From Chamaelirium japonicum (lineage: Eukaryota; Streptophyta; Magnoliopsida; Liliales; Melanthiaceae), in NCBI GenBank assembly GCA_947650365.1, contig OX393551.1, positions 8,407,041 to 8,471,040 on the forward strand: DNA of 64,000 bases, read 5' to 3'. This document shows positions 30,834 to 53,400 of the stretch, one piece after another. Numbering within the stretch: the stretch's first letter is position 1; each line of letters begins with the position of its first letter. The notes under the pieces were generated by a model. It did not search any database, was not told the origin of the DNA, and was given only the letters and a program-made list of their open reading frames with translations. The position numbers and the translations under genes are program-made.

Positions 30834-33800
30834 TCAGGCGGTAGCAGCACCCTTGCCCTTCTTCCGCTGGATCTTCTTCATGTAGAACTCCAGCTCCTTC
30901 CCTTCCAGTATGTACCTGCACCCAGTTGCCACACAAATTCACCCAGTGCGGGGAAACATACACAAGGAATGTGTAGAATACAATAATAAACTTATCGGAG
31001 GACTCACCCATCGGATCTGCCGCACTGGCCTGGGCGGGAAGAGATGCAAGCCAACAACCTACCACCACCAAACTGCTCCTCGATGTGTGCGTCGAGGCTA
31101 CGACCCTCCTGCCGCTTCTCCAGCTTCCGCCCAACATGGTTGCTCTTCTTTGTGGCCTCCTCCACCACACCATCACCCTCCTGCCCCTGCCACACCACCC
31201 ACGAAACGAAGTCAGCAGCACTTTCACTTGATCAGCTAAGGACAGATCCCATAACGAGATTTTGTACTCGAAAAATAAAAATAACATTACAAGTAGAGTC
31301 ATGCATATTTTCACCATCACCATGACCGAGAAATGTGCTATTGGTAGGTACAAAAAATACTAACATCAACGCCATCATAGGAAGACGTGGATGCAGACAC
31401 ATGATCATTAATCGAACCCTGGTCATCTGGCCGCCTGGGCAACCAAACTCGAGAACTAGGAAACTTGCACTGCAATTGTAGGACCAGGGACAACCGACGA
31501 AACTGCAAATCCTGAAAAATAACTAGTTGCTAAAACACTTTCATAGTTTATGACATGGAGCCGTGCTTTTTTAGGCATCCAACACAGACCCATCTGGTCA
31601 TGACTTGCAATCTATCTTTGGAATTCCACAAGTGGAGCCCACAGAGCCCCACTTGTCTATACACGCAGCAGAGTTTGCAGCAGAACTGCAGTATCTCCCT
31701 CGTGTTCCACCCCTGGTTAATTTCAGTTGTCCAGACATATTTGTATTCAATGACCATTGTCAGGGTAGACGGCTGACGTCAGCAGATGATGTGGTTTTGG
31801 TGCAAACTTTTCAGCGGAACTCCCACAAACAAAACCAATGAGCCATTTCCCATCTATTTGGGATTGGCTTTTAGGAATCCCTGCTTCCTTGCCACCTCCT
31901 GTAATAGCGACCTAACTTTGTTCGTACTAGGAAGTTTGGAACTAATTATGGTGCAATACAACTCCTGACTTGAAATATAGCCCCTAATTAATCTTAAGAC
32001 AATGAATAGGCCACAGTTTTTCAGTCTTAGAAGAGTTATGTAATTGATTGTGGATTGTACAAGATAACTCGAATTTTCTTGCAGAGCAACACTTAACCCA
32101 TTTGAGTCAAAAGGAATAGTGGTGGAAAATGATACGCTCTCACTGTCAATAAACAAGGCGTGGAAAAACAATCTCTCGCTTGTAAGAGCAACACTAAAAA
32201 TATAGAATAATCTCTTGCTTGTAAGAGCAACACTAAAAATATAGAATAATCTCTTGCATGTAAGGGTTTGGCACGGTAAATAACAGAGAGTTCACACATG
32301 GCGTGGAACAAAAAAAATCAGAGTAAATCAGCTCAAAATCATAAAAAATTCCAATTTTCTTACCAACAGGAAGAAATCAATATGGATATGTGATCAGAAC
32401 TGCAAACTGACCTATCAGAAATAATCTTATGTCTGAAACAATTTCCTGTAACAATCATAATTTAAGGAGGGCTTTGGTCATCCATACTCAAAAAATTGAA
32501 AATCAAGAGATATCACTGAAAATATTTTTTTTGGGAACATGAGATATACCATGGTGATAGGAAGATTTGACCTAAGTCATTTGGGTATAAATGGTATAAT
32601 CTTTCTACTGATTTGATAGCTAACAAATAAAAAAATAAAAATTTTGAAAAATGTTAAAGCACAACTATGTATAATGTTGTATTAACCGTAACTTAACAAT
32701 ATCTAACAAAACTTATACTAAATAATAGGATATAGATTTGCGATTGTACCCTTTGTAGATCGTCCATTTAGAACCACATTAGAAGTATTCATTAGCTTAA
32801 ATATGAACTTAATAAAACAAAGAGAAAAACATATCCATCACAAACAAGAGTCAACCTTGGATCCTAAAATGGATTAACCATCTGATAGATGAAGGCCAGA
32901 CATTGCTAAATCAACTGCTCCGCTAGAATCGGTAGTACGATTAGCCTCCATTCTAACCAAAACTTATGTTTATTAAACCAACATGCAGTGCACAAGCACT
33001 ACAAATGAATCAACCCTTTTGCGTAAGGATTCTGAATGCAGCTTATGACCAACTTGACCAATTAATGCTTAATTGACCTTATCCTCAGATCAAATCCAAA
33101 ATGGCCCAAACAATAGTGTCAGGGATATGACATCATTGATAAATCATCGACAGGGAATATGATATCATCAACAGGGAATATGATATCATCGATGAATACT
33201 AGGGCAACATCATAACTCAGTAGGATTCCCTGATAGATTGAAATCCCTTCATGTGACTTTAACCGTATACATTAGCATCCTTCTATTACCATTTTGAAAA
33301 GGGGAAAAAAAAGAAGCAAAAGGATAAATCCAAAGTAAAAAAGAACAAGGAAGCAATGGCCTAACATCATGAATAGCCCGCCATCATCATCATCCATAAG
33401 CATGGCCCCACAAAAAATATATTGTAGTGACGAGAACAATATGGCAACTAACCAAGGCGCAGTACGAATATCGCAGTGTGTTTACATCATATGAACAAAA
33501 TAGAGATCCTCGGTCTCCTGCAATAGCTCGCTAGACAAGGGACGGATAAATCTAAGGTTGGAAGTCCAAGACAAAATCGACCCATTTTGGAGATTCGGTT
33601 ATAATCCTATGACCAAGCTCAAAACAGCCAGAAACATAGATCTAAGATCGAAGGAATCCTGGATTGACCAGTTTTGGCCGTAATCAACCTATTTTGATCT
33701 ATTTAAGTCGGTAGTAATTGTTTGGGGTTATTTACTTGTAATTCATTTAAGTTGTTTTTTTTTCCCCGTAAAACATCTGAATACATCTTAATATTTACAT

Positions 33801-53400: not shown

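What the first reader, a model, noticed from the sequence alone, without database searches (positions are those of the whole stretch)
30834..53400. Ribosomal protein eS8 gene split by a 21.6-kb transposon-filled intron
Exons 1-3 (52762-53400) and 4-5 (30834-31180) of one RPS8 gene are on the same strand and in the right order. Their phases match exactly (GAG end of exon 3, phase 0 start of exon 4), the protein is complete at 219 residues, and there are no stops or duplicated parts. The intron holds a 17.1-kb gypsy complex plus an older copia RT fragment. Plant cytosolic ribosomal protein genes usually have introns of a few hundred bases, so an intact housekeeping frame across such an intron is remarkable.
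Basis: partly seen in the sequence, partly recalled or inferred. Interest (0 to 1): 0.88.

Follow-up and report, generated by a model that had tools for sequence, protein, structure and literature searches.

The report
Ribosomal gene with transposon-swollen intron
A plant gene for a ribosome part has one very long intron because a big mobile element jumped into it, but several other ribosome genes checked in the same plant also have introns of many kilobases, so this looks like an ordinary, somewhat extreme case.

Summary
On the minus strand, five exons (53400 to 30834) encode a complete eS8 (RPS8) protein of 221 aa, or 219 aa with a second in-frame acceptor. All four introns are GT-AG: 110, 124, 21,575 and 92 bp. 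The long one holds a 17.1-kb Ty3/gypsy complex (34306-51419) bounded by LTRs and a 5-bp target-site duplication, ATAGG, which ties both flanks to one pre-insertion site and argues against a misjoin. The complex resembles a pol-less Retand-type element: gag, weak antisense Transposase_28 match, tandem repeats, no RT in the 38 ORFs scanned. The claimed copia fragment was not confirmed.

"Remarkable" is not supported. In the plant's own 1.52-Gb assembly the two other multi-exon eS8 genes keep the same introns, with intron 3 of 13.8 and about 5.2 kb. Of 13 control ribosomal-protein loci (five families), 9 have an intron over 3 kb and 3 over 10 kb. Long introns are published for Areca, Chloranthus and pines. 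The exons are under strong purifying selection. Best reading: a working paralog whose already long intron received one more retrotransposon and is spliced out normally. Transcription and splicing are inferred, not shown.

The parts
53397..53400 (-). eS8 exon 1 (ATGG)
53214..53286 (-). eS8 exon 2
52762..53089 (-). eS8 exon 3, ends in phase 0 after GAG; donor GTACCC
31187..52761 (-). intron 3, 21,575 bp (21,581 if acceptor 31181 is used)
31008..31186 (-). eS8 exon 4; alternative in-frame start at 31180
30834..30915 (-). eS8 exon 5 with TGA stop
34301..34305 (.). target-site duplication ATAGG, left copy
51420..51424 (.). target-site duplication ATAGG, right copy
34306..35205 (-). outer 3' LTR (900 bp), polypurine-like tract beside it (by eye)
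50300..51419 (-). outer 5' LTR (1,120 bp), primer-binding-site-like leader just left of it (by eye)
41584..42661 (-). internal LTR, truncated, with its own leader at its left
40245..41291 (-). gag ORF (Retrotrans_gag, E 9e-8)
39094..40152 (-). further gag/protease-like ORF (no Pfam match; protease by eye)
38082..38665 (.). 145-bp tandem repeat array between gag and the 3' LTR
35648..36757 (+). antisense ORF with weak Transposase_28 (PF04195) match, E 0.0074, below the curated cut-off
43994..50250 (.). inverted duplication centred near 47271, the same LTR end at each outer edge (LTRs 43994-45089 and 49109-50250)
51425..52761 (.). older intron, exon-3 side (34% GC)
31187..34300 (.). older intron, exon-4 side (36% GC)

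Best explanation
This is one of three multi-exon eS8 genes of an unnamed, probably monocot plant (inferred). Its intron 3, already about 4.5 kb long, received a gypsy LTR retrotransposon, probably of Retand type and without pol, which now occupies 17.1 kb with internal rearrangement. RNA polymerase II most likely transcribes through the silenced element and the intron is removed by ordinary GT-AG splicing, giving normal eS8. Shown: gene anatomy, intact frame, purifying selection, LTR ends plus target-site duplication. Inferred: transcription, splicing, silencing, and help from an IBM2/EDM2/AIPP1-type pathway that lets polymerase pass intronic heterochromatin.
For: Complete 666-nt CDS with GT-AG ends and near full-length match to PDB eS8 chains. 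dN/dS 0.022-0.042 for exons 1-3 and 0.050-0.103 for exons 4-5 among the three genes. ATAGG on both sides of exact LTR termini. The two outer LTRs are each other's closest: K2P 0.025 in the unique part, 0.037 overall, against 0.034-0.077 and 0.043-0.076 for the other nine pairs. Both other multi-exon eS8 genes keep the same four introns with a long intron 3. Long introns recur in other RP genes.
Against: No RNA evidence. At an LTR divergence of 0.025-0.037 only about 8-12 neutral changes are expected in the CDS since insertion (my estimate), so an intact frame is weak proof of function after insertion; the dN/dS values cover a far longer time. The intron holds nine sense-strand AATAAA words, so premature polyadenylation is possible. 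eS6 loci show only short introns within the domain covered. An intact C9 paralog could carry the whole supply.
Confidence: 0.82

Rival explanations
1. The window copy is a recently silenced paralog: the insertion blocks or prematurely terminates its transcript and C9 and/or C5 supply eS8. The frame is intact only because the insertion is young.
For: Young insertion; intact C9 paralog; sense AATAAA words in the intron.
Against: Frame, splice ends and initiator are intact; long introns recur in the other eS8 genes and other RP families, so such introns seem tolerated.
Confidence: 0.14
2. Assembly artefact: the two gene halves were joined wrongly.
For: The complex is highly repetitive and partly palindromic; the C5 eS8 exon 3 shows single-base indels in otherwise conserved sequence, which may be consensus errors of this assembly; a lone exon 3 exists on C8 with no exon 4 found in the 9.9 kb fetched around it.
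Against: No N in the window; matching ATAGG on both sides of exact LTR ends; halves in correct order, strand and phase; C9 and C5 have their own exons 1-5, and the lone C8 exon 3 is diverged (83% protein identity).
Confidence: 0.04

Closest known systems
Long, TE-expanded introns of large plant genomes (Areca, Chloranthus, pines)
   Same: Very long introns in intact genes. Areca AcGNMT1/2 introns over 17 kb and 6 kb (PMC12046898, passages read; the passages do not state the TE content of those two introns). Chloranthus: LTRs named as the major contributor to long introns (PMC8626473, passages read). Pines: TE-bearing introns of 85 and 106 kb (PMC7602945, passages read).
   Different: Here the host is a cytosolic ribosomal-protein gene; the listings showed no paper on that for plant eS8 (judged from titles and abstract starts only).
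Genes with intronic heterochromatin read through with IBM2/EDM2/AIPP1 (Arabidopsis IBM1, PPD7)
   Same: A repeat-bearing intron inside an expressed gene (PMC11265718, passages read).
   Different: No methylation, chromatin or transcript data exist here; the likeness is by analogy.
Retand-lineage Ty3/gypsy retrotransposons
   Same: gag, antisense ORF with (weak) Transposase_28 match, tandem repeats before the 3' LTR, outer LTR lengths inside the 315-1,194 bp range; non-autonomous members are known (PMC11963269, passages read).
   Different: No pol found, so lineage by RT cannot be tested; internally rearranged with an inverted duplication.

Membership tests
cytosolic ribosomal protein eS8 (RPS8) gene | full-length eS8 sequence without stops | tested here: met
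cytosolic ribosomal protein eS8 (RPS8) gene | same intron positions as other multi-exon eS8 genes of the genome | tested here: met
   C9 and C5 copies have the same four introns
cytosolic ribosomal protein eS8 (RPS8) gene | expressed and spliced | not testable with these tools
   no transcript data for this plant
Ty3/gypsy, Retand lineage | LTRs with TSD, PBS and PPT | tested here: met
   LTRs and TSD; PBS and PPT read by eye only
Ty3/gypsy, Retand lineage | antisense Transposase_28 ORF before the 3' LTR | tested here: inconclusive
   E 0.0074 and 0.0027, both below the curated cut-off; right place and orientation
Ty3/gypsy, Retand lineage | RT phylogeny (definition of the lineage) | tested here: inconclusive
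   no RT in any of the 38 ORFs of 150 aa or more in the complex, so it could not be placed
intronic-heterochromatin gene (IBM1-like) | methylated intron needed for full-length transcript | not testable with these tools
   no methylome or RNA

The most novel reading that the evidence does not exclude
The TE-filled intron acts as a dosage switch: loss of silencing would let a sense polyadenylation site in the intron end the transcript, giving a 141-aa truncated eS8 (exons 1-3 plus VPFLVL) instead of eS8, so that ribosomal-protein output senses heterochromatin, as the IBM1 intron does.
Probability: 0.04. Interest if true: 0.7.

Novelty: new member of a known kind. Interest (0 to 1): 0.22.

Why it matters
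It is a clean, datable example that a small housekeeping gene can keep its frame with a 17-kb retrotransposon in an intron, with two paralogs (intron 3 of 13.8 and about 5.2 kb) as built-in comparisons for the cost of intron length. It also warns annotators that such genes can be split or missed. Beyond that it looks ordinary for a TE-rich plant genome.

Tried and rejected
Copia RT fragment: 15 of 58 listed ORFs of the rest of the intron scanned in Pfam at E up to 5; no RT match, only chance-level names. A very decayed remnant is not excluded.

pol of the gypsy complex: all 38 ORFs of 150 aa or more listed in it were scanned. Only gag, two weak Transposase_28 matches and four sub-cut-off matches (GAS, SOCS_box, DUF6281, Snu56_snRNP), which I take as chance, appeared.

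Empty-site proof from paralogs: intron 3 of the C9 and C5 copies gave no nucleotide match to the window's intron (E up to 1e-3), so the pre-insertion site could not be shown that way; the TSD carries that argument.

RNA genes: none in the window at Rfam gathering scores or by ARAGORN.

Other PF01201 matches as extra eS8 genes: C8:9690599 is a lone diverged exon 3. L006, L008, L013 and L014 gave no real match to the window's eS8 in tblastn (one 15-residue chance match in L008), although they pass the Pfam cut-off. C5:42573990, C372 and C5:42397155 were not examined. These rows were dropped from the eS8 count.

Dropped from the control count: a uL3-like copy at C8:38.72 Mb with stops. Introns are distances between Pfam matches, so lengths are approximate, introns outside the domain are not seen, and eS6 is covered only in part. 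PF00827 was asked for and never answered.

Mobile palindromic element: the palindrome centre was found nowhere else in the 40 scored of 696 candidates. A paper search on self-integration of plant LTR elements returned nothing.

Full report
Gene. The minus strand carries five exons that together encode a complete eS8. Introns are 110, 124, 21,575 and 92 bp, all GT-AG. GC at third positions is 81%. The best PDB match is 4v7e_BI (421 bits, residues 1-219; wheat by recall, the call names no organism); the next seven chains score 398-415 bits, then the scores drop to 269. Two in-frame acceptors six bases apart start exon 4. The C5 paralog has a similar pair; the C9 paralog starts at the downstream position. 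Hence 221 or 219 residues.

Intron. Self-comparison shows five LTR copies, one of them inverted. The outer pair, 50300-51419 and 34306-35205, has exact shared termini with ATAGG on both outer sides. These two LTRs are also the closest pair: 17 differences in 689 sites of the unique part, K2P 0.025, or 0.037 over 898 sites; the other nine pairs range from 0.034 to 0.077 and from 0.043 to 0.076. So the whole 17.1 kb lies in one insertion site. With rates recalled from memory (about 1.3e-8 for grasses, several times slower in palms) this is roughly one to several million years. The rest of the intron, about 4.5 kb, is AT-rich (34-36% GC against 58.5% for the complex). The complex has gag, a 145-bp tandem array and an antisense ORF with a weak Transposase_28 match, repeated in the inverted copy. 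That layout is described for Retand elements (PMC11963269, passages read). All 38 ORFs of 150 aa or more in the complex were scanned; none gave a reverse transcriptase or integrase. Family size: 696 and 1,442 first-look candidates in the genome for two 161-bp probes, of which 40 each were scored.

Contiguity. The window has no N. The matching TSD links the two flanks, and C9 and C5 have their own five exons. A lone, diverged exon 3 on C8 has no exon 4 in the 9.9 kb fetched. I consider a misjoin unlikely, but no reads were available.

Genome context. The window is C3:8407041-8471040 of a 1.519-Gb assembly with 3,253 contigs. The multi-exon eS8 loci are the window, C9 (intact; introns 92, 171, 13,758, 672) and C5 (introns 112, 113, about 5,167, 122). 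C5 exon 3 has three single-base indels in the alignment and probably a fourth at its end, in otherwise conserved sequence: assembly errors or a young pseudogene. dN/dS is 0.022-0.042 for exons 1-3 (130 codons) and 0.050-0.103 for exons 4-5 (82 codons; the variable linker there aligns poorly).

Control. Largest intron seen per locus (approximate except eS8): eS8 C9 13.8 kb, C5 5.2 kb; uL3 12.5, 6.0 and 4.4 kb; eS1 3.1 and 5.7 kb; eL13 10.3, 4.0 and 1.2 kb; eS6 about 0.1, 0.6 and 0.6 kb within the covered domain. That is 9 of 13 loci over 3 kb and 3 of 13 over 10 kb. The window's 21.6 kb is the longest of 14, but belongs to the same pattern. I chose five families; this is not a genome-wide survey.

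Literature. Areca introns over 17 kb and 6 kb (PMC12046898), Chloranthus LTR-rich long introns with expression declining above 40 kb (PMC8626473), pine introns of 85 and 106 kb with TE insertions (PMC7602945), and read-through of intronic heterochromatin by IBM2/EDM2/AIPP1 (PMC11265718): for each I saw passages only. The listings showed no report of this locus or of a plant eS8 gene with such an intron; apart from those named here the listed papers were not opened.

Verdict. A real, intact, probably working gene with a transposon-swollen intron; a new instance of a well-known kind.

Noticed in passing
window 49109-51419; L029, L030: Two LTRs face each other in inverted orientation with only about 49 nt of primer-site leader between them. 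The same layout occurs at C6:59913550 and C2:99153744 (40 scored of 1,442 candidates), so this rearrangement may arise repeatedly or be copied, perhaps through self-integration of the cDNA.
   Followed up: partly
window 43994-50250: Inverted duplication with arms of about 3 kb inside the retrotransposon, with the same LTR end at both outer edges; centre not found elsewhere among the 40 scored of 696 candidates.
   Followed up: partly
L011 3087-3416 (C5 eS8 exon 3): Three, probably four, single-base indels in a strongly conserved exon: assembly consensus errors or a young pseudogene.
   Followed up: partly
window 31181-31190: Tandem in-frame splice acceptors six bases apart, also in the C5 paralog; could give two eS8 forms differing by two residues.
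   Followed up: no
window 11902-12447: ORF with a family 2 glycosyltransferase match (PF13632); cellulose-synthase-like A by recall.
   Followed up: no
window 27357-27845: ORF with cystatin / SQAPI matches and a signal-like start.
   Followed up: no
window 61420-62436: ORF with an RGG-like region of 27-bp tandem repeats (12.6 copies), no Pfam match.
   Followed up: no
G000 C5:71714437-71729325 and C5:71778420-71786833: Two uL3 genes in opposite orientation about 50 kb apart, with long introns of different length.
   Followed up: no
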